DNA of 64,000 nt from Aliiruegeria lutimaris (lineage in GTDB: Bacteria; Pseudomonadota; Alphaproteobacteria; Rhodobacterales; Rhodobacteraceae). The stretch spans positions 1-64,000 of the forward strand of contig NZ_FNEK01000008.1 of NCBI RefSeq assembly GCF_900099935.1. The letters are read 5' to 3'. A program made the translations under genes and the position numbers. The notes under the pieces were generated by a model that made no database searches, had not been told where the DNA came from, and was given only the letters and a program-made list of their open reading frames with translations. Shown here piece after piece: positions 2,087 to 16,706 of this stretch; within the stretch, counting starts at the first letter, position 1; every line of letters begins with the position of its first letter.

Positions 2087-2584
2087 ATGAGCGATACGTT
2101 CGCATCTGCTAAACTCTTCGCCATCACGTTCCTGTTCTGGATGCTGCTCAATGGCGCGCTCGCGCTTGACGTGATCCTTGTCGGTGCGCTCGTTGCCGGC
2201 GCGATCACGTTCTTTCTGGGCGGCAGCCTGCATTTCCTGTCGGGATATCGGCTGACCGGCGCTTCCGCGCGCGCGACGGTCGGATATGTCGGCTACTTCT
2301 TCAAGGAACTGGTGAAGGCGAATATTTCTGTTGCCCGGGTCGTGCTCGATCCCGCCCTGCCGGTGGTGCCCGCAATCGTCAAGGTGCGCACGCGTCTGCG
2401 CAATCCTGTCGCGCGGCTGCTCCTGGCCAACTCCATCACCCTGACCCCCGGAACGCTGACCGTCGAGATGACCGACGAGTGGCTTTATGTCCACTGGGTG
2501 GTCGCCCGGACAACCGACCCGGAAGCCGCGACCGACGCCATCGTCGCCGGTTTCGAGAAGTATCTGGAGGTCATGTATGACTGA
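2087..2584 (+). CDS. mrpE: Mrp/MnhE-type cation antiporter subunit E (MbhA-like)
   Basis: A 165-residue protein with two N-terminal membrane helices (about 8-50) and a cytoplasmic domain. It carries the family motif ANSITLTPGTLTVEM near residues 118-132. MrpE is an accessory membrane subunit of Mrp Na+/H+ antiporters and corresponds to MbhA/MbxA in membrane-bound hydrogenase-type complexes. It is the first gene of a 13-gene operon, with a GCGGAGG ribosome binding site just upstream of the ATG. It overlaps mrpF by 8 bases. In this context it most likely belongs to the cation-translocating half of the redox complex rather than to a free-standing Mrp antiporter, because no MrpA-type subunit is encoded. 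Confidence 0.92.
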   Translation: MSDTFASAKLFAITFLFWMLLNGALALDVILVGALVAGAITFFLGGSLHFLSGYRLTGASARATVGYVGYFFKELVKANISVARVVLDPALPVVPAIVKVRTRLRNPVARLLLANSITLTPGTLTVEMTDEWLYVHWVVARTTDPEAATDAIVAGFEKYLEVMYD

Positions 2585-2837
2585 TACACTCCTGTTCCCC
2601 GGCTGCATCGCCATGCTGGCCTTTGCCCTCGGGTTCTGGCGTTTCGTCGTCGGACCCCGCCCCGTGGACAGGATCGTCGCTTTCGACGGCCTGACCGTGA
2701 TCGCCGTGACCGGGCTGGTGCTCGCCGCATTGGTGTCGGGCCGCGGCATCTACCTCGATGTTGCGCTGGTCTATGCACTTCTGTCTTTCCTGGGGGTCAT
2801 CGTCGCGGCCCGTTACATTGAGGGAGGCGACCAATGA
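2577..2837 (+). CDS. mrpF: Mrp/MnhF-type subunit F (MbhB-like)
   Basis: An 86-residue protein of three hydrophobic helices containing FWRFVVGPRPVDRIVAFDGL, the conserved GP-x-x-x-DR-x-x-A-D/F core of MrpF, and a C-terminal ARYIEGGDQ-like end. The start chosen (ATG at 2577, inside the end of mrpE) gives the normal family length. Longer readings in the same frame start in non-conserved sequence. Its stop overlaps the mrpG start in an ATGA arrangement, implying translational coupling. Corresponds to MbhB in Mbh/Mbx complexes. Confidence 0.92.
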   Translation: MTDTLLFPGCIAMLAFALGFWRFVVGPRPVDRIVAFDGLTVIAVTGLVLAALVSGRGIYLDVALVYALLSFLGVIVAARYIEGGDQ

Positions 2838-3169
2838 TCGTCCTGACCGCTCTCGGTGTCGCCACAATGTCCATTGGCACGGTGTTCCTTGCGCTTGCCG
2901 GTCTCGGCCTGCGGCGGATGCCCGACACCTATACGCGTATTCAGGCCGGCACGAAGGCGACGACGCTCGGCACGATCCTGGCTCTCGTCGGGGCGGCGCT
3001 GATCATGCCTGAATGGACCGTGAAACTGGCGCTGATTGCACTGTTCTTGATGTTCACCAACCCGCTGTCTTCGCAAGTGCTGGCGCGAGCGGCGCATCGT
3101 GCAGGCGTTCCTGCAACCCGCGAGACCAGAACTGACGCTCTGGCCGAGGACAAGGAGGGATTGGCATGA
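2834..3169 (+). CDS. mrpG: Mrp/MnhG-type subunit G (MbhC-like)
   Basis: A 111-residue membrane protein with three helices. It carries the family segment GLRRMPDTYTRIQAGTKATT (around residues 26-45), which is highly conserved in MrpG (R-x-P-D-x-Y-x-R-x-x-A). An AGGGAGG ribosome binding site and ATGA overlap with mrpF support the start. The C-terminal 20 residues are charged and probably cytoplasmic. MrpE-F-G together form the small-subunit bundle that in Mbh-type complexes is proposed to carry the Na+/H+ antiport pathway. It overlaps the next gene by 4 bases. Confidence 0.92.
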   Translation: MIVLTALGVATMSIGTVFLALAGLGLRRMPDTYTRIQAGTKATTLGTILALVGAALIMPEWTVKLALIALFLMFTNPLSSQVLARAAHRAGVPATRETRTDALAEDKEGLA

Positions 3170-3420
3170 GCACGTTGATGCTTGGTCTGGGGCTGGTGAT
3201 CGCGTTGGCGATGGTCGGCGCGGCTGTGGTGGCGCTTGTCACCCGCTCGACGGTCACCGCCGTGTTGGCGGCGGGGCTGGTCAGCCTTTTCGCTTCGGTT
3301 TTCTTCGTCGTCCTGGCTGCACCGGATGTGGCGATGACCGAGGCCGCCATCGGCTCGGGCCTCACCACGTTCCTCTTCTTCTTTGTTATGGGCCGGATCC
3401 GGCGGGAGGGTGAGAAATGA
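3166..3420 (+). CDS. DUF4040 (MbhD-like) membrane subunit
   Basis: An 84-residue protein with three predicted helices. The sequence LAAPDVAMTEAAIGSGLTTF (about residues 47-66) is the hallmark of the MbhD/DUF4040 family, which also occurs as a segment inside MrpA. A free-standing DUF4040 gene between MrpG and an MrpB-like gene is the gene order of Mbh and Mbx operons rather than of ordinary Mrp antiporters, where it is fused to MrpA. The conserved acidic residues in this helix are thought to belong to the proton/cation path. Overlaps both neighbours by 4 bases (ATGA). Confidence 0.88.
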   Translation: MSTLMLGLGLVIALAMVGAAVVALVTRSTVTAVLAAGLVSLFASVFFVVLAAPDVAMTEAAIGSGLTTFLFFFVMGRIRREGEK

Positions 3421-4118
3421 TCCGCAAAGTTGTGATCGGACTCATGGTCGCGTTGCTTGGCGTTGCCTTCTGGACGCTGACCTCTGGCTACGTCCCGGAT
3501 GCGGAACTGAACCGCACCGCTGCCTACTACGCAGCCAATGCCGAGAGCGAGGTCGGGGCCCCGAATATCGTGACCGGCATCATCGTCACCTGGCGTGGTC
3601 TCGACACGCTGGGCGAGGTTACGGTTCTCTTCCTCACCTCCGCGATCATCGCGCTCGTGCTGTCGCAGTCGAAAACGCCCAAAGGGGCGTCCGGAGCGGG
3701 CCTTCTGCCTTCGGGCGAACTGCTTGTCACCGGGGCGCGAATGCTGGCGCCGCTGATCGCCCTCTTCGGTGCCTATGTCATCATGAATGGCCACCTGACG
3801 CCGGGTGGCGGCTTCCAGGGCGGTGCCATTCTCGCTTCCGGCGTGTTGCTGAGCTTGCTGGCAGAACCTTCCCGCCGTTTCGGTCACACGGTGATCGCGC
3901 GGATCGAGAGCTTCTCCGGAACCTTCTATGTTCTCGTCGGGCTTGCAGGCATGGCATACGCCGGAGGTTTTCTCGACAACGGGATCCTGCCGCTCGGCCG
4001 ATTTGGCACCATGCTCTCGGCGGGAGCAATTCCGCTCATCTCGATCCTGATCGGGCTCAAGGTTGGTGCGGAATTCTCCTCGATCCTCGAATCCCTGCAT
4101 GAAACGGAGGATGCATGA
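3417..4118 (+). CDS. MbhE-MrpB fusion (MbhE/F-like) membrane subunit
   Basis: A 233-residue protein in two parts. Residues 1-90 resemble MbhE and the tail of MrpA, with APNIVTGIIVTWRGLDTLGE as the diagnostic segment. Residues 95-233 are an MrpB domain with GHLTPGGGFQGG. In Mbh/Mbx operons these are normally two genes (E and F). Here they form one open frame, and the DNA between the two parts shows no stop or restart. The product should sit beside the DUF4040 subunit and the MrpC-like subunit in the membrane arm. Start and stop both overlap neighbouring genes in ATGA form. Confidence 0.88.
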   Translation: MIRKVVIGLMVALLGVAFWTLTSGYVPDAELNRTAAYYAANAESEVGAPNIVTGIIVTWRGLDTLGEVTVLFLTSAIIALVLSQSKTPKGASGAGLLPSGELLVTGARMLAPLIALFGAYVIMNGHLTPGGGFQGGAILASGVLLSLLAEPSRRFGHTVIARIESFSGTFYVLVGLAGMAYAGGFLDNGILPLGRFGTMLSAGAIPLISILIGLKVGAEFSSILESLHETEDA

Positions 4119-4474
4119 TGGCCCAGATCGCCCTTGCAACAGGCTTTGTGCTGATCCTTGCCGGCCTCTACGGTGCGCTCACCAATCGTGACATCCTGCG
4201 CATGATCGTGGCCTTCACCATCGCCGATACCGGCGTGAATGTCGTGCTCGTCGCCGTGGGCTACATGCCGGGACGGACCGCGCCGATCCTCGACGCGGCG
4301 GTCCCCGTGGCCGTAGCGTCGCAGCGCATTATCGACCCGGTGCCGCAGGCGCTGGTCCTCACCGCCATCGTCATCGGCCTCGGCATCACAGCGCTGATGC
4401 TCGCCTATGCCTACCGGTTGTTCCGGCTGCGTCACAGCCTTGATATCTCGAACTTTACGGAGCTGAAATGGTAA
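4115..4474 (+). CDS. mrpC: NuoK/MrpC-type subunit (MbhG-like)
   Basis: A 119-residue three-helix protein. DPVPQALVLTAIVIGLGITA (around residues 73-92) is the signature of the NuoK/MrpC family, and the second helix holds an acidic residue (TIADTGVNVV) as expected for the channel. An alternative ATG lies one codon downstream. It overlaps the DUF4040/MrpB-side neighbour by 4 bases and the large antiporter gene by 7. It forms part of the membrane arm that links the small Mrp subunits to the antiporter-like subunits. Confidence 0.92.
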   Translation: MMAQIALATGFVLILAGLYGALTNRDILRMIVAFTIADTGVNVVLVAVGYMPGRTAPILDAAVPVAVASQRIIDPVPQALVLTAIVIGLGITALMLAYAYRLFRLRHSLDISNFTELKW

Positions 4475-7400
4475 GCCCGGTCCTTATAATTGCCATCGGC
4501 CTCGGCACGGCATTCGCCCTGGGGCTGCTGGGATCTACCCGCAAGACCCTCCTCTTCGGCGTAACGCTTGCTGCCCTGGCCGCCATGGCCACGATCAGCC
4601 TCATCTGGCTCGTGGCCCTCGCCACCGGCGCCACGGAGACGGCAGAGATTCATACAGCCGGTGTGGCCCCGCCCTTTGCGATCAACCTGCGCGTGGGTAT
4701 CGCCGAAGCCGCGCTGCTTGCGACAGTCACCCTCACCGGGTTGCTCGCGGCGCTGTCGCTGCGTGCGCAGCTTCTCACCCTCGGACGCGGCGGCATGGCG
4801 GTACTGTTGGTGCTGGTCATGGCCATCTCGGGCCTCGTGATGACGCGCGACCTCTTCAACATCTTCGTCTTCATCGAACTGGTCGCCATTGCCACCGCCG
4901 GCCTCGTGCTGCTCTCCGAGGACACCCGCGCCGTTTGCGCCGGTTTCAAATTCCTCGTGGTCAGCCAGATCATCGCGATCCTGCTGCTGGTTGGTATCAT
5001 CTTCACGTATCACGCGAACGGCTCGCTCAATATCGACGATATCGGCGCGACCCCTGTCGCCGCCCAGGGCGCGGCCCTGGCGATGTTCCTGCTGCTGATC
5101 GCGCTCGTGATCGAACTCAAGCCCTTCCCGGCGAATGGCTGGGCTCTCGACATATATACCAGCGCGCATCCCGGCTTCTCGGCGATCTTCTCGGCCGCCA
5201 CCGGCAGCGCAGCGCTGTTCGTTGTCGACAAGGTCGTCGCACCAGCCGGTGCCGAGTGGCTGCCGCTTCTGACCGGTATCGGGTTGCTGAGCTTTGTCGG
5301 CTCCAATGTCGTGGCGCTTCGGCAAGACAATGACCGCCGCCTGCTCGGATATTCCTCGGTCGGTCAACTCGGTCTCGTGCTCGCCGTGATCGGCCAGCGC
5401 GATGTGCTGGGCGACGCCTATCTCTACGTCGCGGGCGGGCTTGTCCTGTCCCACGCCGTGGCCAAGGCAGGCCTGTTCTGGATGTCTGCCATCCTGCGCG
5501 GCCGCAAGCTTCAGGACTGGGCCGCCATCCGCGCCCGCGCGCCGATGGTGCTGGCCTTCGCCACGTTCATCGCCATGCTCGTCGGTCTTCCGCCCTTCCC
5601 GGGTTTCTACGCCAAGTGGGACCTTGCGCAGGCACTCGTGGCCGCGGGGCGGCTGCCGGTTCTCGGGCTGATCCTGCTCGGCGTGCTGATCGAAGCCGCC
5701 TATCTCTTCCGCTGGTTCGGCTTCGCCATCAAACGCGAAGCGCCGGAAAGCGGGCTCTCCGCCAACATGGTGGATTGTGGCATCACCTTCGCAGCCGTCG
5801 CCGGCGGATGGGCCCTTGGCTGGATCTGGGGCGCGATCCCGGGACAGCACAATGTTCTCGCAACACTTCCGGTGCTGGCTGTTGTGGCATTCATCGCCCT
5901 GGAGCCGCTCCCTGCGAAACTCAAGAACGTGCTCGCCATCGCGGCGCTGCTCGGCTGGTTCGCGCTGGTCTACGGTGACTATGACCCGATGCGCCTGATC
6001 TTCGCGGTCGTAATGATCCCCGGCGGGGCTGTCATTCTCCTCGCCTCCTTCTCGGAGACGGGACGGCGGATCGGTTTCTACCCGTCGGCCATGGCAATGT
6101 ATGCCGGTCTCGCGCTGCTGCTCGAAGCGAACACTTTCTTCGAGTTCTTCGCAGCCTGGGAGGTAATGACCCTCGGCTCCTACTTCCTGATCCTGCGTGG
6201 TCGGATGTCGGAACCGCACGCGCTGAGCTACATGCTCTTCTCGCTCGGTGGCGCCTTTGCGTTGCTCGCGGGCTTCGCGCTTGCCTCCGGCGGGGTCCAG
6301 CCCTTCGCGCTTGACCAACTCGGTACGGTCACGGCGGAACTGGCGCCTTGGGTCTTCGTCCTTCTGGCGATCGGCTTCATGACCAAGACCGCGGCCATGG
6401 GCCTCCATATCTGGCTTCCCGGCGCACATGCCGAGGCCGAAACGGATGTTTCGCCCATGGTCTCCGGCATCCTGCTGAAGGCGGGGCTCTTCGGCCTCTT
6501 CGTGATGCTGATGCAACTTGGCCGGCAGAGCCTTTGGGGTGTCGACCTGACGGTCGTGCTCGCCTGGATCGGCGCAATCTCCGCCTTCCTGGGCGCGGTG
6601 CTTTCGATCTTCCAGGAAGACGCCAAGCGGCTGCTGGCCTACAGCTCGATCAGCCAGATGGGCTATGCGCTCTTCGGCGTCGCGCTGATGAACCACCTCG
6701 GCTGGCTGCTGGCGATGATGTTCGTCATCAACCACTACGTCTACAAGTCGATGCTCTTCCTTGCCGTGGGCGGCGTCTACAAGCGTACCCATACCAAGCT
6801 GATGTACCAGATGGGTGGGCTGATCACGCTGATGCCCTTCACCTTCGTCTCGGTACTGGTGGGGATCATCGCCATGTCCGGCGTTCCGCCGCTTTCGGGC
6901 TTCGGCGGCCGTTGGATCTTCTACAACGCGATCATGGATGCCGACCTGCGCCTGCCGCTGATCCTGATCTTCATGGCGGGTCCGATAGGCTTCCTCTACC
7001 TCTTCCGGCTGATCCACACGATCTTCCTGGGGCAACTGAAGGATCCGCACCGGCAGCTGAAGGAGGCACCGTTCTGGCTGGTGCTGCCGCAAATGATCTT
7101 CGCCGCGTTCCTCATCGCCTTTGCCGTTCTGCCCGGAATGGCGCTGCAACGGGTCGATGGCTATATCGGCTCGATCTTCGGCGACCAACCGCTTATCTGG
7201 CAGGGCCGCGCCATCACGTCCGAGTTCGGCTACTGGAACCCGGTCGCGATCATGGTGGTGATCGCGGTGGTCTTCGTCGCGGTCTTCCTGATCCTGATCG
7301 CCAAGAACCACGACGCCCAAAAGGTGAAGCAGTTCAACATCGTCTTCTCCGCCGAGCGGCCCTACCGCCCCGAGACGACGCATTTCGCGTGGAACTTCTT

Positions 7401-7596
7401 CGCCCCCTACCGCAAGGCAATGGGCATCCTTGAAACCCCGGTCGTCACCTCCTTCTGGGGCGGCGTGACGGACGGCGTCAACGGCGCGGCGGAGTTCACC
7501 CGCCGCTTCTACACCGGCAACGGACAGACCTACGCGGCGCATGTGCTGCTCTTCGTGGTTGCCGTTTACCTGATCGCCATGGGAGGCGTCGCATGA
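4468..7596 (+). CDS. Double antiporter subunit: two fused NuoL/M/N- or MrpD-type modules (MbxH'-MbxH-like)
   Basis: At 1042 residues this is twice the size of a normal MrpD or NuoN protein. Two complete proton/cation antiporter modules lie in tandem, roughly residues 1-490 and 520-1042. Module 1 has the TM5 glutamate in NIFVFIELVAIATAGL (E137) and a divergent lysine segment VIELKPFPANGWALD. Module 2 has the equivalent glutamate in FFAAWEVMTLGSYF (E565) and the canonical segment TKTAAMGLHIWLPGAHAEAE followed by SPMVSGILLKAG. The C terminus adds long amphipathic and membrane segments. Mbx complexes are distinguished from Mbh by having two antiporter subunits (H and H'), so a fusion of the two matches the Mbx pattern. 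No frameshift or stop is present at the junction. Confidence 0.9.
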   Translation: MVSPVLIIAIGLGTAFALGLLGSTRKTLLFGVTLAALAAMATISLIWLVALATGATETAEIHTAGVAPPFAINLRVGIAEAALLATVTLTGLLAALSLRAQLLTLGRGGMAVLLVLVMAISGLVMTRDLFNIFVFIELVAIATAGLVLLSEDTRAVCAGFKFLVVSQIIAILLLVGIIFTYHANGSLNIDDIGATPVAAQGAALAMFLLLIALVIELKPFPANGWALDIYTSAHPGFSAIFSAATGSAALFVVDKVVAPAGAEWLPLLTGIGLLSFVGSNVVALRQDNDRRLLGYSSVGQLGLVLAVIGQRDVLGDAYLYVAGGLVLSHAVAKAGLFWMSAILRGRKLQDWAAIRARAPMVLAFATFIAMLVGLPPFPGFYAKWDLAQALVAAGRLPVLGLILLGVLIEAAYLFRWFGFAIKREAPESGLSANMVDCGITFAAVAGGWALGWIWGAIPGQHNVLATLPVLAVVAFIALEPLPAKLKNVLAIAALLGWFALVYGDYDPMRLIFAVVMIPGGAVILLASFSETGRRIGFYPSAMAMYAGLALLLEANTFFEFFAAWEVMTLGSYFLILRGRMSEPHALSYMLFSLGGAFALLAGFALASGGVQPFALDQLGTVTAELAPWVFVLLAIGFMTKTAAMGLHIWLPGAHAEAETDVSPMVSGILLKAGLFGLFVMLMQLGRQSLWGVDLTVVLAWIGAISAFLGAVLSIFQEDAKRLLAYSSISQMGYALFGVALMNHLGWLLAMMFVINHYVYKSMLFLAVGGVYKRTHTKLMYQMGGLITLMPFTFVSVLVGIIAMSGVPPLSGFGGRWIFYNAIMDADLRLPLILIFMAGPIGFLYLFRLIHTIFLGQLKDPHRQLKEAPFWLVLPQMIFAAFLIAFAVLPGMALQRVDGYIGSIFGDQPLIWQGRAITSEFGYWNPVAIMVVIAVVFVAVFLILIAKNHDAQKVKQFNIVFSAERPYRPETTHFAWNFFAPYRKAMGILETPVVTSFWGGVTDGVNGAAEFTRRFYTGNGQTYAAHVLLFVVAVYLIAMGGVA

Positions 7597-8498
7597 CCTT
7601 CGAGTGGATCCAAGTTCCTTACGCGCTCGCCACGCTGTTCATCATCCTGAACTACGGGCTGCTGATGACGGCGGTGGTGCAAAAGCTTGCCGCCCGGGTC
7701 GGCGGACGGCCGGGCATCCCGGTCTGGCAGAACTATATCGACCTGGTGAAGAACTTCGCGCTCCGCTCGAAGATCAGCCATGGCGTGATGTACTATCTCG
7801 GCCCGGTCTTCCGGCTTTCGGGCGGGATCGGCCTCATCTTCTTCGTGCCGACAATCTACGGAAGCACCTGGGCGCAGAACTTCTCCTTCGCCGGAGACCT
7901 CATTCTGGCGCTTTACTTCATCTTCTTCGGCACCTTGGGGATGGCGCTTGGCGCTGGTGAAAGCGGACACCCGCACTCGGCCATCGGCGTCTCGCGCGGG
8001 CTCGCGCAGGTGACGGCGGCCGAACTGCCGATGGCGCTGGCGGTCTACGCAATCGCCATCCAGTACCAGACTCTCTCGATCACCGAGATCGTGGCGGCGC
8101 AGCAGGGTGGGCTGTTCAACTGGACGCTCTTCACCAACCCGATCGCCGTCGCGGCCGCGATGTTCGCCTATGTCGGCACGACGATGCGCTCGCCCTTCGA
8201 CGTGGTGATCGCGCCGCAGGAGATCCCGATCGGCCCGCCGACGGAATACCACTCGGCCTACCTAGCGCTGATGCAGACCAACCGCGTGATCTTCCCCATC
8301 GCCAAGACGATCATCTACATGAACATCTTCTTCGGTGGGGCGACGAACTGGGCGGAATTCGCGATCAAGGTCTTCCTGCTCTACATGATCCCGGCCGTGA
8401 TCGGCGTGGTTCACCCGCGCTTCCGGGTCGAGCAATCCATCCGCTTCTTCCTGAAATGGGGCCTGCCCGTGGGCGTGCTCGCAATCCTGATGGTGTGA
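7593..8498 (+). CDS. NuoH/MbhM-type membrane subunit
   Basis: A 301-residue membrane protein with about eight helices. SRGLAQVTAAELPMALAVYA and the later SPFDVVIAPQEIPIGPPTEY correspond to the conserved cytoplasmic loops and acidic residues (PFD...E...E) of NuoH that connect the redox modules to the membrane arm. In complex I the latter loop reads PFDLPEAESEL; here it is clearly of the hydrogenase (MbhM/MbxM) type. ATGA overlap with the antiporter gene shows coupled translation. The product anchors the NuoB/NuoD-like pair to the membrane. No quinone-site claim is possible from this subunit alone. Confidence 0.9.
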   Translation: MTFEWIQVPYALATLFIILNYGLLMTAVVQKLAARVGGRPGIPVWQNYIDLVKNFALRSKISHGVMYYLGPVFRLSGGIGLIFFVPTIYGSTWAQNFSFAGDLILALYFIFFGTLGMALGAGESGHPHSAIGVSRGLAQVTAAELPMALAVYAIAIQYQTLSITEIVAAQQGGLFNWTLFTNPIAVAAAMFAYVGTTMRSPFDVVIAPQEIPIGPPTEYHSAYLALMQTNRVIFPIAKTIIYMNIFFGGATNWAEFAIKVFLLYMIPAVIGVVHPRFRVEQSIRFFLKWGLPVGVLAILMV

Positions 8499-8501
8499 GA
8501 T

Positions 8502-9194
8502 ATGAAAGACGTTGACGACAAGTTCCTGAAGAACATCGACAAGGAGTTCCCCCTGCGGGAGGAGCTGCGTCCCCGGACCGTGACGACACCCGATGGTCAG
8601 GAGATCGAGATCGAACCGCTCAAGGATTATTTCTGCGAGGCGGCGCCGAAGGTGCATCCCAAGGCCTATATCCCGATCGTCGAGAATTTCTACAACTGGG
8701 CGCGGGCCAACTCGCTCTGGATTCTCGGCTTCGGTACCGGATGCGGCGCCATCGAGATGCGCCCGCTGATGACCCCGCGCTTCGATGCGTACCGCTACGG
8801 CATCCAGTGGCGCCCGACGCCGCGGCAGGCGAACCTGCTGATGATCTCGGGCTATCTCTCGGTGAAAACGCTCAAGCGCGCGGTCCGCGCCTACGAGCAG
8901 ATGCAGGGGCCGAAATACGTGGTCGGACTTGGGTCCTGCACCATCAATGGCGGCATGTACTGGGATAGCTACAATACGATCAAGAAGCTGGACCAGTACC
9001 TGCCCGTCGATCTTTACATTGCCGGTTGCATGCCGCGCCCCGAGGCGCTGCTCGCCGGCTTCATGGATCTCAAGAAACTGATCAAGGCCGGGAAATGCGA
9101 AGGGGCGAACAAGTACGCCGAGAACTTCGCGTTCTACAAAGAGAACCAGAAGTCCGTGATCAAGGACTGGGATATGCCGGATTACAACTGGTGA
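8502..9194 (+). CDS. NuoB/MbhJ-type iron-sulfur subunit
   Basis: A 230-residue soluble protein. The N2-type cluster region is visible: FGTGCGAIEM (C81), GSCTINGGMYWDSYN (C146) and AGCMPRPEALL (C176). Complex I NuoB has two adjacent cysteines before AIEM; here the second is glycine, leaving three obvious ligands. C45 (YFCEAAP) or C199 could contribute a fourth. The N-terminal 50 residues are an extension without clear family features. It lies 3 bases after the NuoH-like gene. Role: the terminal [4Fe-4S] cluster of the electron chain, facing the NuoD-like subunit. Confidence 0.92.
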   Translation: MKDVDDKFLKNIDKEFPLREELRPRTVTTPDGQEIEIEPLKDYFCEAAPKVHPKAYIPIVENFYNWARANSLWILGFGTGCGAIEMRPLMTPRFDAYRYGIQWRPTPRQANLLMISGYLSVKTLKRAVRAYEQMQGPKYVVGLGSCTINGGMYWDSYNTIKKLDQYLPVDLYIAGCMPRPEALLAGFMDLKKLIKAGKCEGANKYAENFAFYKENQKSVIKDWDMPDYNW

Positions 9195-9730
9195 CGGAAA
9201 TGCGCGACATACATGCAAGACTGAAACAACGCCATCACCTGGGCCAGTTCGAAAGACAGCGCCCCGGCCTCGCCTTCTTCACGGTGCCGCGGGAATACCT
9301 GCGCGGCCTGCTGCTGGATTTGCGCGACAAGGAGGGGTTCAGCCACCTTGTCCTGCTGACGGCTGTGGACTGGATGGAAGAGGGGCTGTTCCAGCTCACC
9401 TACATGCTCAACAACCGTGCCGAGGACGTGACCTTCGGCATTCGCGTGATGCTCGACAGGGACGAGGCCGAGGGCGACAGCATCCACGATCTCTGGCCCA
9501 CTGCGGAGACCTACCAGCGCGAGCTCAAGGAGATGTTCGGTATCAATTTCCCCGGTTCGCCGCGGATTGACGACGAGTTCATCCTCGAAGGCTGGACCGA
9601 CCTGCCGCCCTACCGGCGCGACTTCGACAGCCTCGCCTACTCGCAGCAGACCTATGCCGAGCGTCCGGGCCGTGTGACCCACGATCCGCGAGAGCACATG
9701 AAACAGAAACTTTATCCGGACGGGGTGTGA
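9191..9730 (+). CDS. NuoC/MbhK-type subunit
   Basis: About 179 residues. The C-terminal half contains QRELKEMFGINFPGSPRIDD and LPPYRRDF, the conserved ending of the NuoC 30-kDa family (E-R-E-x-x-D-x-F-G-I-x-F-x-G-x-P in complex I). The start is uncertain: a GTG at 9191 overlaps the preceding stop as GTGA, in keeping with the rest of the operon, but ATG at 9200 is equally possible and would shorten the protein by three residues. It is a structural subunit that packs against the NuoD-like protein in the peripheral arm. One base separates it from the next gene. Confidence 0.9.
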   Translation: MTEMRDIHARLKQRHHLGQFERQRPGLAFFTVPREYLRGLLLDLRDKEGFSHLVLLTAVDWMEEGLFQLTYMLNNRAEDVTFGIRVMLDRDEAEGDSIHDLWPTAETYQRELKEMFGINFPGSPRIDDEFILEGWTDLPPYRRDFDSLAYSQQTYAERPGRVTHDPREHMKQKLYPDGV

Positions 9731-9731
9731 C

Positions 9732-10910
9732 ATGTTCAGCTTCAAACCCGACCGCAGCCAGTATCCCGCCGCAGGCGAAGACGGAAAGCTCGAGATCGAC
9801 CTAGAGACGGGCAAGTATCTCAAGCTCTGGCAAGGTCCGAACCACCCCGGCATCACGGGCAACATGTCGGTCGAACTGACCGTCTGCGGCGACGAGGTCG
9901 TGAAAGGTACGACCCATGTCGGCTACCTGCACCGCGGCTTCGAGAAGCTGATGGAACGGCGGACCTTCATCCAAGTCTTCCCCATCGTCTGCCGCGTCTG
10001 CGTGCCCGAGCCCGACTTCAACGAGTATTGCTACGCTGCGGCGGTCGAGGATCTCGCTGGCATCGAGGTGCCGGAATATGCCGACTGGATGCGGACGCTG
10101 ATCCTCGAGATGGGCCGCTTCAACAGCTACATGATGTTCCTTGGCGGCATCGGCGGCGCGCTCGGTCTTGGCATCACCGGCCAGTGGATGACCTATCTGC
10201 GCGACATCATGCTCGACCGTTTCGAGGAACTGACCGGCGCCCGGATCTATCACATGTTCATCCTGCCGGGCGGCGTTCGCGGGCATCTGCCCGAGGGGTT
10301 CGAGGGGCGCATGGAGGAGGTGCTCGACACCGCCGAGCGTTACCTGGCCGATATCGACAGGGTCATGTTCTCCAACTCTGTCTTCAAGACCCGGACGCAA
10401 GGCGTGGGCTATATCGACCCTGCGCTCTTCGAACCTTATGGCGTCACCGGTCCCAATGCCCGCGCCGGCGGCGTGGCCAAGGACCTGCGCAAGGACAGCC
10501 CGTATCTCGTCTACGATCAGCTCGATTTCGACGTGGTAACGCATACTGACAGCGACATCTGGGCCCGTTCCAACGTGCGCCGGCAGGATGTGCAGGTCTC
10601 CATCGACCTGATCCGTCAGATCCTGCGCAAGATGCCGAAAACGGGCCCTGCCATGGCGAAGATCCCCAATGTCCTGCATTGGAAGATCCCGCGCGGCGAG
10701 ACCTACATCAGGGGCGAATGCTCGCGCGGCGAGTACGGCTACTACCTCGTGTCGGACGGATCGGGCTACCCGCGCCGTATCAACGTGCGAGGGCCGAGCT
10801 ACACCCACGCGATGGCGCTTCTGGAACATATGATTCCGGGAACGAACATCTCCGACGTCGCAGCGCTGATGGTGTCGCTGCACACCTATCCCCCCGAGAT
10901 CGAGAGGTAA
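9732..10910 (+). CDS. NuoD/MbhL/MbxL-type large subunit without NiFe ligands
   Basis: A 392-residue protein. HVGYLHRGFEKLMERRTF (about 62-79) is the conserved N-terminal block of the NuoD/hydrogenase large-subunit family. A CRVC pair follows at C87 and C90, at the place of the first CxxC of NiFe hydrogenases. The C terminus ends SLHTYPPEIER where hydrogenases carry DPCxxC, so the second metal-binding pair is absent and it cannot be a normal NiFe hydrogenase. The complex I motif GPxHPxxHG reads GPNHPGITG, so the quinone-site histidine is also missing. This combination, one CxxC retained and one lost, resembles MbxL/MbsL-type proteins. It probably houses a modified catalytic or electron-exit site next to the NuoB-like cluster. 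Confidence 0.9.
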   Translation: MFSFKPDRSQYPAAGEDGKLEIDLETGKYLKLWQGPNHPGITGNMSVELTVCGDEVVKGTTHVGYLHRGFEKLMERRTFIQVFPIVCRVCVPEPDFNEYCYAAAVEDLAGIEVPEYADWMRTLILEMGRFNSYMMFLGGIGGALGLGITGQWMTYLRDIMLDRFEELTGARIYHMFILPGGVRGHLPEGFEGRMEEVLDTAERYLADIDRVMFSNSVFKTRTQGVGYIDPALFEPYGVTGPNARAGGVAKDLRKDSPYLVYDQLDFDVVTHTDSDIWARSNVRRQDVQVSIDLIRQILRKMPKTGPAMAKIPNVLHWKIPRGETYIRGECSRGEYGYYLVSDGSGYPRRINVRGPSYTHAMALLEHMIPGTNISDVAALMVSLHTYPPEIER

Positions 10911-10913
10911 GCC

Positions 10914-12710
10914 ATGGGCCTGCGCGAAGTCCTCACCCCGTTCACCGTCTGGAAACGCGTCTTCGACGAACCAGTCACGATCAAGGACCCTATCGGCCGT
11001 CCGGGCGCAGACCGCTATCGCGGTTTTCACCAGAACGACATGGACAAATGCATCGGCTGCGGCACCTGCGAGACGATCTGCCAGAATGCGGCAATCGACA
11101 TGGTGCCGATTGAAGGAGTCGAGCCAGAAAAGGGCGATTCCGGTTTGCGCCCGCAGATCGACTATGGCCGCTGCTGCTGGTGCGCGCTCTGCGTCGATGT
11201 CTGCATGACCGGCTCGCTCACCATGTCGAACGAGTACACATGGGTGGATACCGACCCCGACAAGTTCCGCTTCATCCCCGGCATCGACGGCGACTGGAAG
11301 GACGACGTCGCGGGTTATGAACGCGAGGGCCAGCGGGTGCTCTCGGGTGTCGAGCGGATTCATATGGAGGAGATGGAGCCGGAGGCGCGGATCTGCAATT
11401 TCGACGAGATCGTCGCCGGGTACACGCGGGAAGAAGCGGTGCTCGAGGCAGACCGTTGCGTCGAGTGCGGTCTTTGCGTCGCGACCTGCCCGGCGCATAT
11501 GTCCATCCCCGATTACATCGCCGCCGTGCGTGACCAGGATTACGACCGCGGGTTGCAGCTTCTCTACGAGACCAACCCGTTCTCCGAGGTCTGCGGTCGT
11601 GTCTGCACTCACAAATGCGAGTCCTCCTGTGCCGCGCTGCACGAGGGCGACCCGATCGCCATTCGTTGGCTCAAGCGCCACATCATCGACGAGGTGCCCT
11701 TTGATCGCCGCATCGAGCTGATCGGCCAGCCAGTCGAGCCCAACGGTCGCAAGGTGGCGATCATCGGCGCAGGTCCGGCCGGCCTGACGGCTGCCTTTGA
11801 TCTGGCACGCGCCGGAACCAGCGTCGTGGTCTACGAGGCGCTGGAACATGCCGGCGGGATGATGCGCTATGGCATCCCCGAGTACCGGCTGCCCTACGAC
11901 GCGCTCGACCGCGATATCGGCGTGATCCAGGCGATGGGCGTGGAGATAAAAACCAGCTGCCGCGTTGGCCGCGACGTCATGATGGAGGATCTCCAGCGCG
12001 AAAACGACGCCGTGGTCCTTGCAATCGGGCTGCACATGGGCCGCTCGACCCGCGTTCCCGGCACCGATGGCCCGGGGGTCGAGAAGGCGGTAGACCTGTT
12101 GCGCCGTATAACCGATGGCGAAGAGGTGCCGGTTCCGGAGCAACTGGTGGTGATCGGTGGCGGCAACGTCGCGATGGATATCGCCCGTTCCATGGCCCGG
12201 CTGCAGAAGGCCAAATACGGCGAGGTCGGGATCACCCTCACGGCACTCGAGGATATCGATCATTTCCTTGCCGATCCCGAGGAGGTCGTCGAGAGCCGGG
12301 AGGAAGGTGTCGAGATCTTCGATGCCCGCGGACCGCAAGAAGTGATGCGCGACGCGTCTGGCGCGGTGACGGGCCTGCGGACCTGGCGCGTCAAGTCGAT
12401 CTTCGACGCCGAAGGCCGGTTTGCGCCCGCCTATGACGAGAGCGACGAGCGTGTTCATGCCGGCACCATGGTGATCGAGGCCATCGGCCAGGCGGCCGAC
12501 ACATCGCTGCTCGGCGAGGCCCTGACCGAGGCGCTGGAATGGAACCGTGGCCGCATCCGCATCGACGATGCTTTCCGGACATCGGAACCCTGGCTCTTCG
12601 CGGCCGGCGATGCGGTGAAAGGACCCGATGTGATCACTGCGGTGGCTGACGGCCATCGCGTTGCCCGCACGGTGATGGAAGAATTCTCAGCAAGGCAGGT
12701 GATGCAATGA
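10914..12710 (+). CDS. Fusion of NuoI/MbhN-type ferredoxin with NfnB/GltD-type FAD-NAD(P) oxidoreductase
   Basis: A 598-residue protein with two functional parts. Residues 1-110 are a NuoI-like two-cluster ferredoxin: C46, C49, C52, C56 and C87, C90, C93, C97. Residues 165-598 resemble glutamate synthase small subunit/NfnB: cysteines C182-C185-C188-C192 and C227-C231-C235-C239, an FAD fold at VAIIGAGPAGLTAAFDLARA (281-300), a second dinucleotide fold at VVIGGGNVAMDIARS (about 412-426) and a C-terminal FAD-contact segment FAAGDAVKGPDVITAVADG. The fusion physically joins the NAD(P)H-reacting flavin module to the cluster chain leading to the NuoB-like subunit, replacing the NuoEFG module of complex I. 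NAD versus NADP preference is not evident. Overlaps the next gene as ATGA. Confidence 0.92.
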   Translation: MGLREVLTPFTVWKRVFDEPVTIKDPIGRPGADRYRGFHQNDMDKCIGCGTCETICQNAAIDMVPIEGVEPEKGDSGLRPQIDYGRCCWCALCVDVCMTGSLTMSNEYTWVDTDPDKFRFIPGIDGDWKDDVAGYEREGQRVLSGVERIHMEEMEPEARICNFDEIVAGYTREEAVLEADRCVECGLCVATCPAHMSIPDYIAAVRDQDYDRGLQLLYETNPFSEVCGRVCTHKCESSCAALHEGDPIAIRWLKRHIIDEVPFDRRIELIGQPVEPNGRKVAIIGAGPAGLTAAFDLARAGTSVVVYEALEHAGGMMRYGIPEYRLPYDALDRDIGVIQAMGVEIKTSCRVGRDVMMEDLQRENDAVVLAIGLHMGRSTRVPGTDGPGVEKAVDLLRRITDGEEVPVPEQLVVIGGGNVAMDIARSMARLQKAKYGEVGITLTALEDIDHFLADPEEVVESREEGVEIFDARGPQEVMRDASGAVTGLRTWRVKSIFDAEGRFAPAYDESDERVHAGTMVIEAIGQAADTSLLGEALTEALEWNRGRIRIDDAFRTSEPWLFAAGDAVKGPDVITAVADGHRVARTVMEEFSARQVMQ

Positions 12711-13201
12711 CCGAGGCGAGCAAGGAGCGACTGTCAGGAAAGGCAACGGTACGGGAGATTTTCGACGTTGCCACGGAGTTCGAAAGGGTCGCGCACCGTT
12801 TCTACTCCGAGCTGATTCCGAACGTGTCCAAGAACATTCGCTGGCTGGTGGAGGAACTGGCCGAGGAAGAACTGGAGCATGTGGAGCTGTTTTCCAACCT
12901 GGGGAAAAATCCCGAAGTCGAGTCGGTGATGGCAGCGGAAATTGCCCGCCCGGTGGCGGACAGCAAGTTTTCCGATTGCGTGCATACACCGGATCTCGGC
13001 GCCAACCCGGATGATCAGGCTGTGCTGCAATACGCGCTGATGCGGGAAAGCGCGGCCATGGATCAATATACCGAACTTGCCGAAAGCGCCCCGGAAGGTC
13101 CGCTGAAGGAAGCCTTTGTCTTCCTTGCCAACGAAGAAACCAAGCACAAGGCGGAACTGGAGAAGATCTACTACGAGATTGTCCATTCGGGCGGCGTTTG
13201 A
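12707..13201 (+). CDS. Rubrerythrin-like ferritin-fold diiron protein
   Basis: A 164-residue helical protein with two ExxH pairs, EELEH (around residues 54-58) and EETKH near residues 142-146, plus further glutamates in helices 1 and 3. This is the diiron ligand set of the rubrerythrin/ferritin-like superfamily. There is no C-terminal rubredoxin domain. It is the last gene of the mrp/mbx operon and overlaps the preceding stop by 4 bases, so co-production with the complex is likely. Rubrerythrins reduce peroxide with electrons from NAD(P)H or ferredoxin. A protective or electron-accepting role beside the complex is an inference. Confidence 0.85.
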   Translation: MTEASKERLSGKATVREIFDVATEFERVAHRFYSELIPNVSKNIRWLVEELAEEELEHVELFSNLGKNPEVESVMAAEIARPVADSKFSDCVHTPDLGANPDDQAVLQYALMRESAAMDQYTELAESAPEGPLKEAFVFLANEETKHKAELEKIYYEIVHSGGV

Positions 13202-13457: not shown

Positions 13458-14360
13458 TTATTCCACGAGGCGACCGTAATCCGCCGGCTGGCGGTGCATT
13501 GCGAAGTCGAAGACATTCCTGCGGATCTCGCCACAGCGGTCGAGGTTGACCCGCGCCGTGATGACCTCGTCATCCGTGCCGGCAGCCCGTGCGAGGACCT
13601 CGCCCGTCGGCGCAACGATGACGCTGCCACCAATCAGATCGCAACCTTCCTCGCGCCCGGCCTTGGCCGTTGCAATCGCCCAGAGCCCGTTCTGATAGCA
13701 CCCCGCCTGGATCGACAACTCGTTGTGGAAATATTGCAGGTGATCATGCTCTGGCGCGGGCGGGTAGTGCAGGGGCGTGTTGTAGCCCAGCACGACCAGT
13801 TCGGCGCCACCAAGCCCCAGCATCCGCCAGGTTTCCGGCCAGCGACGGTCATTGCAGATGCACATGCCCAGCTTGCCGCCCATGGCGTCGAAAACCGGGA
13901 AACCCAGATCGCCCTTTTCGAAATAACGTTTTTCGAGGTGCTGGAAGGGGCGCCAGTCTTCGTGCTCCCAATGCCCCGGCAGGTGGATCTTGTGATACTT
14001 GCCGACAATCTTGCCCGTCGCATCGACGAGGATCGCGGTGTTGAACCGCCGTCCCTCCGGGGTGAGTTCCGCGTAGCCGAGATGGAAGCCGATCCCCAGC
14101 TTCGCCGCGAGATCGAACAGCGGTTGCGTGCTCGCGGAGGGCATCTCCGTCTCGAACCAGGTGGCAATCTCTGCCTCGTCCTCGATATACCAACGCGGAA
14201 AAAACGTGGTCAGCGCCAGTTCGGGGAAGACCACCAGTTCGGCGCCGCGGGCATTGGCCTCGCGCATCATTTCCATCATCCGGGCGACCGCCGAGCTGCG
14301 CGGCTCGTCGCGGGCGATGGGGCCCAACTGGGCCGCGGCAGCGATGAAAGACCGGCTCAT
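13458..14360 (-). CDS. N-carbamoyl-D-amino-acid hydrolase
   Basis: A 300-residue nitrilase-superfamily enzyme that hydrolyses N-carbamoyl-D-amino acids to the D-amino acid, CO2 and ammonia. The catalytic triad is visible: E47 in VFPELALTTFFPRW, the lysine in VGKYHKIHLPGH, and the cysteine in MCICNDRRWPETW. PFQHLEKRYFEKGDLGFP and AHD-type substrate residues also match the well-known Agrobacterium enzyme almost word for word. It is the last gene of a minus-strand operon, and its ATG overlaps the stop of the ammonia-lyase gene (ATGA). A hydantoin racemase lies 10 kb away in the same locus, but no hydantoinase is present in the window. Confidence 0.93.
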   Translation of the reverse strand: MSRSFIAAAAQLGPIARDEPRSSAVARMMEMMREANARGAELVVFPELALTTFFPRWYIEDEAEIATWFETEMPSASTQPLFDLAAKLGIGFHLGYAELTPEGRRFNTAILVDATGKIVGKYHKIHLPGHWEHEDWRPFQHLEKRYFEKGDLGFPVFDAMGGKLGMCICNDRRWPETWRMLGLGGAELVVLGYNTPLHYPPAPEHDHLQYFHNELSIQAGCYQNGLWAIATAKAGREEGCDLIGGSVIVAPTGEVLARAAGTDDEVITARVNLDRCGEIRRNVFDFAMHRQPADYGRLVE

Positions 14361-15577
14361 GCGGCACTTCCTTCCATGATCTCTCGGTACAGCACGGGGT
14401 CTGTCGCGCCCTCGGTGCCGAAGACCAGGACGCGGGTGTCCGGGCCGAGCCCGAACGCCTCGGCGGCTTCGGGTACCTTGAGCGCGTTGGCGAGGCCCGC
14501 GAGCCCGGCAACGGCGCTTTCACCGGCGACAATGGCCGGGTCGCCGTCCAAGGGAGCAGCCAGCATGCGCATCTCGCGGATGGCCGATGAATCGGGCAGC
14601 GCCATGACAGCATCCGAATGCGTCTTCAGGATCTCCCAGGCGAGCGACGAGACCTCGCCGCAGGCGAGACCGGCCATCATCGTGTCGAGATCGCCCTCGA
14701 TGGCCGTCGGAGCGCCGGTCCGGATGCTCTCCAGCCAGCAGGCCGAGAGGTCCGGATCGGCCAGAACGACTGTCGGGCGCTCCGCGCCCCAGCGGCGTTT
14801 CGCCTGCGCCGCGACCGCCGCGGCCATGCCGCCGACGCCGGTTTGCAAAAATATATGGGTGGGCGGTTGCTCCAGCGCATCGAAAGCTTCTGCGGCCATC
14901 AGTTCATAGCCTTGCATCACGTCCTTGGGGACTTCCATGTAGCCCGGGTAGGAGGTGTCGGAGACAACGAACCAGCCCTCGCGGGTGGCGGTTTCCTGAG
15001 CTTCGCGCACGCTGTCGTCGTAATTTCCGGCGGTGCGGCGAACCTCGGCGCCATAGGCCTCGATCGCGGTCTTGCGGCCTTCGGAAACCGTGGCGTGGAT
15101 GAAGATCACGCATTTGCAGCCGAAACTCTGCGCGCCCCAGGCGACGGAACGCCCGTGATTGCCGTCTGTTGCGCAGCAGACGGTGATGTCCTTGGTGATC
15201 TCTTCATGCGCGCCGCTGACGATCTCGGCCATCGGCACCGGGTGCCCGAGCGTGGTCTCGACCTGTTTCTGCAACAGGCGGATGACGGCATAGGCACCGC
15301 CGAGCGCCTTGAAGCTGCCGAGCCCGAAACGCCCGCCTTCGTCCTTGAAATGAAGCGCAGCGATACCGAGCGCGGCGGCGCGGGCGGGCAGGGCGCGGAG
15401 CGGCGTCTCGGCATAGCCGGGCCAGGAGGAAATGGTCTCGCGCGCGGTGGCAAACGCACCGTCGCTCAGGATCTCGTCCTGGCGCGCGGTCCAGGGCGCG
15501 GCGCGGTCCGCGGCGGCGTTGATCGTGAGGGTGAAATCGTCCGCCGAACCCTCGGCGCGGGTGAGTTCTCGGGTCAT
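14357..15577 (-). CDS. dpaL: Diaminopropionate ammonia-lyase
   Basis: A 406-residue fold-type II PLP enzyme. FKDEGGRFGLGSFKALGGAYAV-type sequence (residues 77-97) contains the PLP lysine at K90 and is diagnostic for 2,3-diaminopropionate ammonia-lyase (YgeX/DpaL). ATDGNHGRSVAWGA and QTGVGGMAAAVAA provide the cofactor phosphate and glycine-rich loops. The enzyme converts 2,3-diaminopropionate to pyruvate and two ammonia, accepting both enantiomers in characterised members. It is transcribed with the TRAP transporter genes upstream and the carbamoylase gene downstream, suggesting that a diaminopropionate-type amino acid, possibly carbamoylated, is imported and degraded. Confidence 0.92.
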   Translation of the reverse strand: MTRELTRAEGSADDFTLTINAAADRAAPWTARQDEILSDGAFATARETISSWPGYAETPLRALPARAAALGIAALHFKDEGGRFGLGSFKALGGAYAVIRLLQKQVETTLGHPVPMAEIVSGAHEEITKDITVCCATDGNHGRSVAWGAQSFGCKCVIFIHATVSEGRKTAIEAYGAEVRRTAGNYDDSVREAQETATREGWFVVSDTSYPGYMEVPKDVMQGYELMAAEAFDALEQPPTHIFLQTGVGGMAAAVAAQAKRRWGAERPTVVLADPDLSACWLESIRTGAPTAIEGDLDTMMAGLACGEVSSLAWEILKTHSDAVMALPDSSAIREMRMLAAPLDGDPAIVAGESAVAGLAGLANALKVPEAAEAFGLGPDTRVLVFGTEGATDPVLYREIMEGSAA

Positions 15578-15630
15578 GTGATGTCCATGGAAATGCCCGG
15601 GCGACAGGGCGCCGCCCGGGGACGCCGCGC

Positions 15631-16668: not shown

Positions 16669-16706
16669 TCTCGTTTCCTTTCCTGTTGGGGAGTTGACTG
16701 GGCCGC

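What the first reader, a model, noticed from the sequence alone, without database searches (positions are those of the whole stretch)
2087..13201. Mbx-type membrane redox complex with Mrp modules in an apparent marine alphaproteobacterium
Thirteen tightly overlapping genes encode MrpE, F, G, DUF4040, an MbhE/MrpB fusion, MrpC, a double antiporter, NuoH-, NuoB-, NuoC- and NuoD-like subunits, a NuoI-NfnB fusion and a diiron protein. This is the Mbh/Mbx gene order of anaerobic thermophiles (established for Pyrococcus-type Mbh and Mbx), not the order of Mrp antiporters or complex I. There are no NuoEFG or MrpA genes. Seen directly: gene order, motifs, overlaps. Inferred: a cation-pumping NAD(P)H-linked oxidoreductase with an unknown partner (ferredoxin, sulfane sulfur or a quinone).
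Basis: partly seen in the sequence, partly recalled or inferred. Interest (0 to 1): 0.95.

Follow-up and report, generated by a model that had tools for sequence, protein, structure and literature searches.

The report
NADH-linked sulfane-reductase-type ion pump operon
A marine bacterium related to Aliiruegeria carries, besides its normal respiratory complex I, a second related membrane machine of a type known from hot anaerobes; it looks rebuilt to run on NADH and has an extra ferritin-like gene that relatives in other phyla lack beside theirs.

Summary
Thirteen tightly packed genes (2087-13201) encode an Mrp-like module (MrpE, F, G, MbhD, MbhE/MrpB, MrpC), two fused antiporters, NuoH/B/C/D-like subunits, a NuoI-NfnL fusion and a ferritin-like diiron protein. 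For NuoB, D, H, I and both antiporter halves the best solved relative is Pyrococcus MBS (=Mbx). A NuoD tree places the family with MBS, outside complex I and [NiFe] hydrogenases. Site residues agree: one of four Ni ligands, no quinone residues, three core cluster cysteines in NuoB. The NuoI-NfnL fusion is a known family, also in Thermotoga maritima, so the kind is not new. Apparently new: a proteobacterial clade (Tropicimonas, Celeribacter, Magnetovibrio, Thiothrix, Sideroxyarcus) with an added diiron gene (35 of 36 testable loci; 0 of 11 elsewhere), a predicted NADP-to-NAD switch, and loss of one pump lysine. It is rare: 2 of 149 sampled genomes of the host family. Best reading: an NADH-coupled H+/Na+ pump whose far reaction uses sulfane or disulfide sulfur at the three-cysteine cluster; ferredoxin:NAD+ is the main rival. 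Substrate and direction are untested.

The parts
2087..2584 (+). MrpE-like (MbsA-type) subunit
   Evidence: Pfam MNHE 3.7e-37
2577..2837 (+). MrpF-like subunit; ATG at 2577 is the likely start (2559 was used in some calls)
   Evidence: Pfam MrpF_PhaF 2.9e-16
2834..3169 (+). MrpG-like subunit
   Evidence: Pfam PhaG_MnhG 1.2e-23
3166..3420 (+). MbhD/DUF4040 subunit
   Evidence: Pfam MbhD 1.2e-17
3417..4118 (+). MbhE-MrpB fused subunit
   Evidence: Pfam MnhB 1.1e-22 and MbhE 2.9e-08
4115..4474 (+). MrpC/NuoK-like subunit
   Evidence: Pfam Oxidored_q2 1.4e-21
4468..7596 (+). Double antiporter: MbsH-like N half plus MbsH'-like C half in one 1042-aa protein
   Evidence: two Proton_antipo_M stretches; best solved relatives 6u8y_X and 6u8y_H; MbsH K250 equivalent not Lys in 32 of 32 aligned
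7593..8498 (+). NuoH/MbsM-like membrane anchor
   Evidence: Pfam NADHdh 8.5e-44; 6u8y_M 6e-37, next best 2.1e-11
8502..9194 (+). NuoB/MbsJ-like subunit with three conserved proximal-cluster cysteines (C81, C146, C176)
   Evidence: 6u8y_J 9.9e-61; cysteine columns
9200..9730 (+). NuoC/MbsK-like subunit
   Evidence: Pfam Complex1_30kDa 5.4e-23
9732..10910 (+). NuoD/MbsL-like subunit, 1 of 4 [NiFe] cysteines, no quinone H/Y
   Evidence: 6u8y_L 1.2e-91; tree; residues
10914..12710 (+). NuoI/MbsN - NfnL (GltD-like) fusion; 16 cluster cysteines, FAD and NAD(H) domains
   Evidence: NF010590 854 bits; Pfam; cysteines; NAD site
12707..13201 (+). Ferritin-like diiron protein, found only beside proteobacterial versions of the operon
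   Evidence: Pfam Rubrerythrin 1.6e-10; ligands E26, E55xxH58, E114, E144xxH147; distribution

Best explanation
A membrane-bound, redox-driven cation pump of the Mbx/MBS class. Electrons are exchanged with NAD(H) at the FAD of the NfnL-like domain and pass through four predicted [4Fe-4S] clusters of the fusion protein to the proximal cluster in NuoB. That cluster has only three conserved cysteine ligands in its core. It faces the chamber between NuoB, NuoD and NuoH and exchanges electrons with a sulfane or disulfide sulfur compound. This moves the coupling loops, drives H+ through the two fused antiporter units, and the Mrp part exchanges H+ for Na+. The reaction is near equilibrium (recalled potentials), so it may also run backwards (sulfide or persulfide to NAD+, driven by the ion gradient). 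The diiron protein probably shields the complex from O2 or peroxide. Shown: gene content, phylogeny, residues. Inferred: NAD(H) preference, cluster chain, pumping, sulfur substrate, role of the diiron protein.
For: Best solved relative is MBS 6u8y for NuoB, D, H, I and both antiporter halves. NuoD tree: split of {MBS, family, two clostridial relatives} from {complex I, [NiFe]} with bootstrap 100. Site residues as in MBS: Nqo4 H38->T42, Y87->V91, MbhL E21->G43, three of four Ni cysteines lost; three core cluster cysteines in 38 of 38 aligned NuoB and Gly in 38 of 38 where MBS has its non-ligating C25. In MBS the three-cysteine cluster is the catalyst (PMC7684303, passages and section 9). Fusion: all 16 cluster cysteines kept in all rows or all but one of the 46-47 rows that have a letter there; the NADP-type YRR of four solved NfnL relatives is replaced by an acidic stretch, with Glu at position 446 in 41 of 47 rows. 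Antiporter channel residues mostly kept.
Against: No activity data. C45 of NuoB (34 of 38) could be a fourth cluster ligand, and C87, C100, C52 and C330 of NuoD, each frequent in the family, are not Cys in MBS where the alignment shows them. The energy span NADH to sulfane sulfur is small (recalled potentials). The K250 position of the first pump is not Lys in 32 of 32. SoxB does not separate carriers from non-carriers. No gene family other than ABC-transporter ATPases recurs in more than 4 of 30 flanks (proteins of 100 aa or more), so no sulfur partner is seen nearby.
Confidence: 0.42

Rival explanations
1. Ion-coupled ferredoxin:NAD+ oxidoreductase (an Rnf-like job): reduced ferredoxin docks at the NuoI-like domain, NAD+ is reduced at the fused FAD domain, and ions are pumped; or the reverse.
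For: Mbx was named ferredoxin:NADP oxidoreductase in Clostridia (PMC4596419, passages). MBS takes electrons from ferredoxin (PMC7684303, passages). All 23 genomes tested, 9 of them carriers, have a POR domain, so reduced ferredoxin is likely made. 4 of 9 carriers have no RnfC over the cut-off, the window genome included.
Against: In this superfamily the pumps are thought to be coupled to the reaction at the proximal-cluster chamber (PMC7684303); a Fd to NAD+ path within the fusion protein would bypass it. No clear link with nitrogenase: NifH over cut-off in 4 of 9 carriers and 2 of 14 non-carriers, but within the genus 1 of 4 and 2 of 5. 5 of 9 carriers do have RnfC. A scan of the flanks for short ORFs with CxxCxxCxxxC found none in 29 of 30 stretches and one antisense ORF 16 kb away in the window.
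Confidence: 0.3
2. An alternative NADH:quinone oxidoreductase (a slim complex I).
For: NuoH/B/C/D/I homologues plus a nicotinamide module; the host has complex I as well.
Against: Nqo4 H38 and Y87, which hold the quinone head, are T and V in the window; V in 25 of 25 family rows, T in 23 of 25 (the two clostridial rows have His). NuoD lies outside complex I in the tree. No NuoEFG and no third antiporter in the operon.
Confidence: 0.12
3. An Mrp-type Na+/H+ antiporter whose redox arm is only regulatory or has lost its job.
For: Six Mrp-like subunits; the K250 position of the first antiporter half is not Lys in 32 of 32 rows.
Against: Core cluster cysteines of NuoB (38 of 38) and of the fusion protein (all or all but one of 46-47 rows) are kept over phyla, which implies selection for electron transfer. 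No MrpA in the operon.
Confidence: 0.05

Closest known systems
Pyrococcus furiosus MBS (= Mbx), PDB 6u8y
   Same: Closest solved sequences for NuoB/D/H/I and both antiporters, three-cysteine proximal cluster, no quinone or Ni site.
   Different: Here MbsN is fused to an NfnL domain, MbsH and MbsH' are fused, MbsJ C25 and MbsL C385 are Gly and Tyr, the MbsH K250 position is Ser, a diiron gene is added, and the host is a proteobacterium.
Thermotoga maritima MBX (13 subunits, PMC9431562)
   Same: A NuoI-NfnL protein of family NF010590 rings over the cut-off in T. maritima; 13 subunits reported there.
   Different: The window protein scores 854 bits, below the 946-bit cut-off. I could not fetch the T. 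maritima operon, so it is not shown here that the fusion lies in it, and no gene-by-gene comparison was done.
Ehr complexes (energy-converting hydrogenase related)
   Same: Hydrogenase-like subunits without Ni ligands plus Mrp-like subunits (definition from PMC6349859, passages, which also mentions an Ehr from Acinetobacter).
   Different: Umbrella class; the Margulisbacteria/Saganbacteria ones are proposed there to work with formate dehydrogenase and NuoE/F-like genes, not with NfnL.
Nfn transhydrogenase, large subunit NfnL (5vj7, 5jca, 4ylf)
   Same: Fer4_20 plus FAD and nicotinamide domains, 224-237 bits.
   Different: No NfnS in the operon; YRR motif replaced by an acidic stretch; fused to NuoI.

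Membership tests
MBS/Mbx | Redox and pump subunits closer to MBS than to complex I or Mbh | tested here: met
   NuoD 310.6 bits vs 209 (Nqo4) and 127 (Mbh); NuoB 208.6 vs 135.5 and 94.6; NuoH 131 vs 47; NuoI part 82 vs 51; antiporters 6u8y_X and 6u8y_H first; tree
MBS/Mbx | Proximal cluster held by three cysteines | tested here: met
   C81, C146, C176 in 38 of 38; Gly78 at the MBS C25 position. By sequence only; C45 (34 of 38) could be a fourth ligand
MBS/Mbx | No quinone H/Y, no MbhL E21 | tested here: met
   T42, V91, G43
MBS/Mbx | Two of four Ni cysteines kept (C85, C385) | tested here: not met
   only C90 (=C85) kept; Tyr at C385 in 20 of 25 family rows, Cys in 5. The MBS double mutant of these two had comparable activity (PMC7684303, passage), so this is a variant, not a loss of class
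MBS/Mbx | Two antiporter subunits with intact channel residues | tested here: inconclusive
   both present but fused; 32 aligned: E137, E216, K383, E565, K671, H756 in 32, H329 and K640 in 31; K250 equivalent Lys in 0; K399 equivalent Arg in 25, Lys in 7
MBS/Mbx | Ferredoxin-dependent sulfane sulfur reduction coupled to ion pumping | not testable with these tools
   needs biochemistry
Respiratory complex I | NuoEFG, three antiporters, quinone residues, NuoD within the complex I clade | tested here: not met
   a complex I NuoD is on C121
Group 4 [NiFe] hydrogenase | Two CxxC Ni-binding motifs in the large subunit | tested here: not met
   1 of 4 cysteines; outside the Mbh/HycE branch
Mrp antiporter | MrpA plus MrpB-G, no redox subunits | tested here: not met
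Nfn | NfnS partner and NADP(H) site | tested here: not met
   no NfnS in the operon; YRR replaced. NADP preference of YRR is recalled
Ehr | Hydrogenase-related subunits without Ni ligands plus Mrp-like subunits | tested here: met
   definition from PMC6349859 passages

The most novel reading that the evidence does not exclude
A branch of the complex I superfamily that has moved into respiring Proteobacteria: NADH-linked, working on sulfane or disulfide sulfur at an open-site [4Fe-4S] cluster, with an O2-protecting diiron subunit. With one of four Ni cysteines left, it is a step between MBS (two) and complex I (none). In sulfur-oxidising hosts it may run backwards to make NADH from sulfide using the ion gradient.
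Probability: 0.25. Interest if true: 0.82.

Novelty: new variant of a known kind. Interest (0 to 1): 0.6.

Why it matters
MBS/Mbx has been studied as a relic of anaerobic thermophiles and as a stepping stone to complex I. A family of it in Proteobacteria with named, deposited strains (Tropicimonas, Celeribacter, Magnetovibrio) would let its substrate, its coupling and its oxygen tolerance be tested in mesophilic laboratory hosts. The loss of one pump lysine in all 32 aligned members and the predicted cofactor switch are natural experiments on how this superfamily couples electrons to ions.

Tried and rejected
Nitrogenase link: NifH over cut-off in 4 of 9 carriers and 2 of 14 non-carriers (genus only: 1 of 4 and 2 of 5), absent from the window genome; not the general purpose. 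Replacement of Rnf: RnfC over cut-off in 5 of 9 carriers and 2 of 14 non-carriers; no replacement pattern, if anything the reverse. Thiosulfate oxidation: SoxB in 7 of 9 carriers and 12 of 14 non-carriers; uninformative. POR in 23 of 23; uninformative. The 23 genomes were picked by me, are few and not independent. Conserved gene neighbours in 30 stretches (about 1 kb or less upstream for most, up to 10 kb downstream, proteins of 100 aa or more): the largest cluster, 7 stretches, is ABC-transporter ATPases at varying places (3 of its 8 members named by Pfam); a dihydroorotate dehydrogenase-like protein follows the operon in 4 Bacteroidetes loci; nothing else is in more than 3. Foreign DNA by G+C: operon 0.626, rest of the window after 13201 0.630; no signal. 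Viral contigs: no relative of the fusion protein. Plasmids: 246 records match NuoD, all under 60% identity. A metal site from the extra NuoD cysteines was considered; they are not strictly conserved and I had no coordinates to measure distances. Promoter and terminator scan: no more sites than in shuffles.
Full report
What is there. The window (contig C126 of a 5.8-Mb genome in 193 contigs) holds 13 genes in one direction from 2087 to 13201. They overlap by 4-8 bases or are 1-5 bases apart (with MrpF starting at 2577). The 1042-aa antiporter protein contains two Proton_antipo_M stretches; the N half is NuoN/MbsH-like and the C half NuoM/MbsH'-like. The closest named locus is Aliiruegeria sabulilitoris (L058): 95-100% identity over the 13 proteins and the same four downstream flank genes tested at 90-98%. 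A complex I NuoD sits on contig C121; it is 28% identical to the operon's and groups with complex I.

Which family. Against solved structures, P. furiosus MBS (6u8y) is the best match for NuoD (310.6 bits; Nqo4 209, Mbh 127), NuoB (208.6; next 135.5), NuoH (131; next 47), the NuoI part (82; next 51) and both antiporter halves. A maximum-likelihood NuoD tree of 33 sequences (three references without their C-terminal part) splits {MBS, 23 family members, two clostridial relatives} from {complex I, Mbh, HycE} with bootstrap 100; the 23 members form a clade with 100; MBS joins them to the exclusion of the clostridial pair with only 82. The AlphaFold model of NuoD (pLDDT 84.8) matches 6u8y_L with TM 0.87/0.92, rank 2 by E-value; rank 1 is a complex I chain, and complex I-type chains among the 50 listed score 0.82-0.86 on the query, so fold alone does not decide.

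Active site. In the tree alignment Nqo4 H38 falls on T42, Y87 on V91 and MbhL E21 on G43; of the four Ni cysteines only C90 remains. MBS keeps two and complex I none (PMC7684303, passages). NuoB has C81, C146 and C176 in 38 of 38 rows and Gly78 at the position of MBS C25. PMC7684303 reports that in MBS three cysteines hold the proximal cluster and that its open iron is the catalyst (passages; section 9 read whole). Unexplained: C45 in NuoB (34 of 38), and C52 (37 of 48), C87 (41 of 48), C100 (39 of 48) and C330 (31 of 48) in NuoD. Only proteins of at least 85% of the window length were aligned: 38 of 40 NuoB, 48 of 51 NuoD, 47 of 51 fusions, 34 of 36 diiron proteins, window included. Three genomes were fetched twice (L024=L027, L025=L029, L026=L028), so some rows repeat.

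Electron entry. The fusion protein belongs with NCBIfam NF010590 (854 bits, below the curated 946). At E <= 1e-200 that family rings in one of 14 control genomes, T. maritima, over the cut-off. The fusion has 8 NuoI-type and 8 Fer4_20-type cysteines, hence four [4Fe-4S] clusters (inferred), plus FAD and nicotinamide domains. The four solved relatives printed have YRR after the second nucleotide-binding strand, which I recall as the NADP phosphate site. Position 446 is Glu in 41 of 47 rows, Lys in 2 and Arg in 4; the four Arg rows (L057, L061-L063) have the YRR form. I infer NAD(H) for the window protein.

Pumps. In 32 aligned double antiporters (of 37 found; those of 900 aa or less were left out) E137, E216, K218, K333, K383, E565, K671, H756 and K760 are invariant, with H329 in 31 and K640 in 31 (one X). 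The MbsH K250 position is never Lys (T 13, S 11, A 5, G 2, V 1), and the MbsH' K399 position is Arg in 25 and Lys in 7. In the Peptococcaceae locus L064 the two antiporters appear as separate pieces.

Distribution. In the host family 2 of 149 genomes (148 genera) carry the fusion at high score; at most seven candidates per genome were scored. In the class sample it is 1 of 289, the window genome itself; in the phylum sample 6 of 398, the window genome and one diverged member, G699, included; in the genus 4 of 9. These samples overlap. A scan of the genome-contig collection (84,980 species) with two short patterns returned 43 loci; 41 are true relatives and 2 (L068, L069) are weak GltD-like hits that I dropped. 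By record title they come from Alpha-, Beta- and Gammaproteobacteria (including Tropicimonas, Celeribacter, Sinisalibacter, Aliiroseovarius, Aliiruegeria, Magnetovibrio, Thiothrix, Sideroxyarcus), Bacteroidetes, Neomarinimicrobiota, Cloacimonadota, Spirochaetes and Clostridia. The patterns favour close relatives, so this is a lower bound.

The diiron gene. By tblastn with the window protein it follows the operon in 35 of 36 proteobacterial loci (window not counted) where the contig reaches far enough: L060 lacks it, and L066 and L067 end too early; three of the 35 are duplicates. It is beside 0 of 11 testable loci from other or unassigned phyla (L056 ends too early). In a concatenated tree of five subunits and 38 loci the proteobacterial loci are split from all others with support 1.000 and, rooted on L064, lie among the versions of other phyla. 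This fits one transfer into Proteobacteria with gain of the gene, followed by patchy spread (inferred). The protein keeps E55 and H58 in 32 of 34, E114 in 30, E144 in 34, H147 in 33, and E26 in 26 with D in 6. Its model (pLDDT 91.6) has only weak matches in the PDB, the best a thioferritin at E 0.011.

How it works. In this superfamily ion pumping is thought to be coupled to the reaction at the proximal cluster (PMC7684303). The residues speak against H2 chemistry, make quinone unlikely and resemble the sulfane site of MBS. I therefore commit to NAD(H) on one side and a sulfane or disulfide on the other, coupled to H+/Na+ movement. I put about 0.85 on a redox-driven cation pump, 0.7 on NAD(H) as partner and 0.45 on a sulfur substrate; the direction is open. 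Ferredoxin as donor is the main rival. Gene panels over 23 genomes (RnfC, NifH, SoxB, POR) do not decide, and no partner gene is widely conserved in the flanks.

What is in print. MBX in T. maritima is a 13-subunit operon whose mbxA rises 4.36-fold with sulfur (PMC9431562, passages). Mbx in Clostridia was called a ferredoxin:NADP oxidoreductase and was reported to move horizontally (PMC4596419, passages). Ehr complexes are discussed in PMC6349859 (passages), which mentions one from Acinetobacter; so hydrogenase-related complexes in a proteobacterium are not unheard of. PMC12361115 (passages) and PMC6085437 (passages) did not describe this system in the passages I saw. Searches listed no paper whose title or shown abstract describes an Mbx/MBS complex in Proteobacteria; several listings were cut (for example 20 of 1,048, 30 of 134, 12 of 115), and subscription papers (Schut 2013, Schut 2016, Marreiros 2013, seen only as citations) are not in the library, so this is no proof. 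I recall that the P. furiosus operon order is mbxABCDFGHH'MJKLN, which would match this one; I did not test it.

Noticed in passing
window 8502-9194 (C45) and 9732-10910 (C52, C87, C100, C330): Extra conserved cysteines in NuoB and NuoD that MBS lacks at the aligned positions; possible fourth cluster ligand or redox disulfide.
   Followed up: partly
L064 8874-9977, L065 354-1457: Clostridial relatives keep a His at the Nqo4 H38 quinone position and the C385 equivalent.
   Followed up: no
L050 10976-11977, L052 11767-12792, L053 5048-6040, L055 11916-12908: A protein of 330-341 aa follows the fusion gene in four Bacteroidetes loci; the L052 copy matches dihydroorotate dehydrogenase (PF01180), a few bases behind the fusion. 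This recalls dihydropyrimidine dehydrogenases, where a GltD-like and a DHODH-like part work together (the comparison is recalled).
   Followed up: partly
window 13458-18520, - strand: Next to the operon: a nitrilase/amidase-family gene, a diaminopropionate ammonia-lyase-like gene and ORFs that look like a TRAP-type transporter (by eye), perhaps a catabolic cluster; shared with A. sabulilitoris but not found in the held flanks of ten other loci.
   Followed up: partly
G000 contig C139:21041-23219: A GltD-like match next to a POR-domain match, with a similar pair in G007 (C12) and G012 (C45); may be a ferredoxin oxidoreductase with its own nicotinamide module.
   Followed up: no
L039 8841-10001: NuoD of Candidatus Thiothrix singaporensis is split over several pieces, probably sequencing errors in that assembly.
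   Followed up: no
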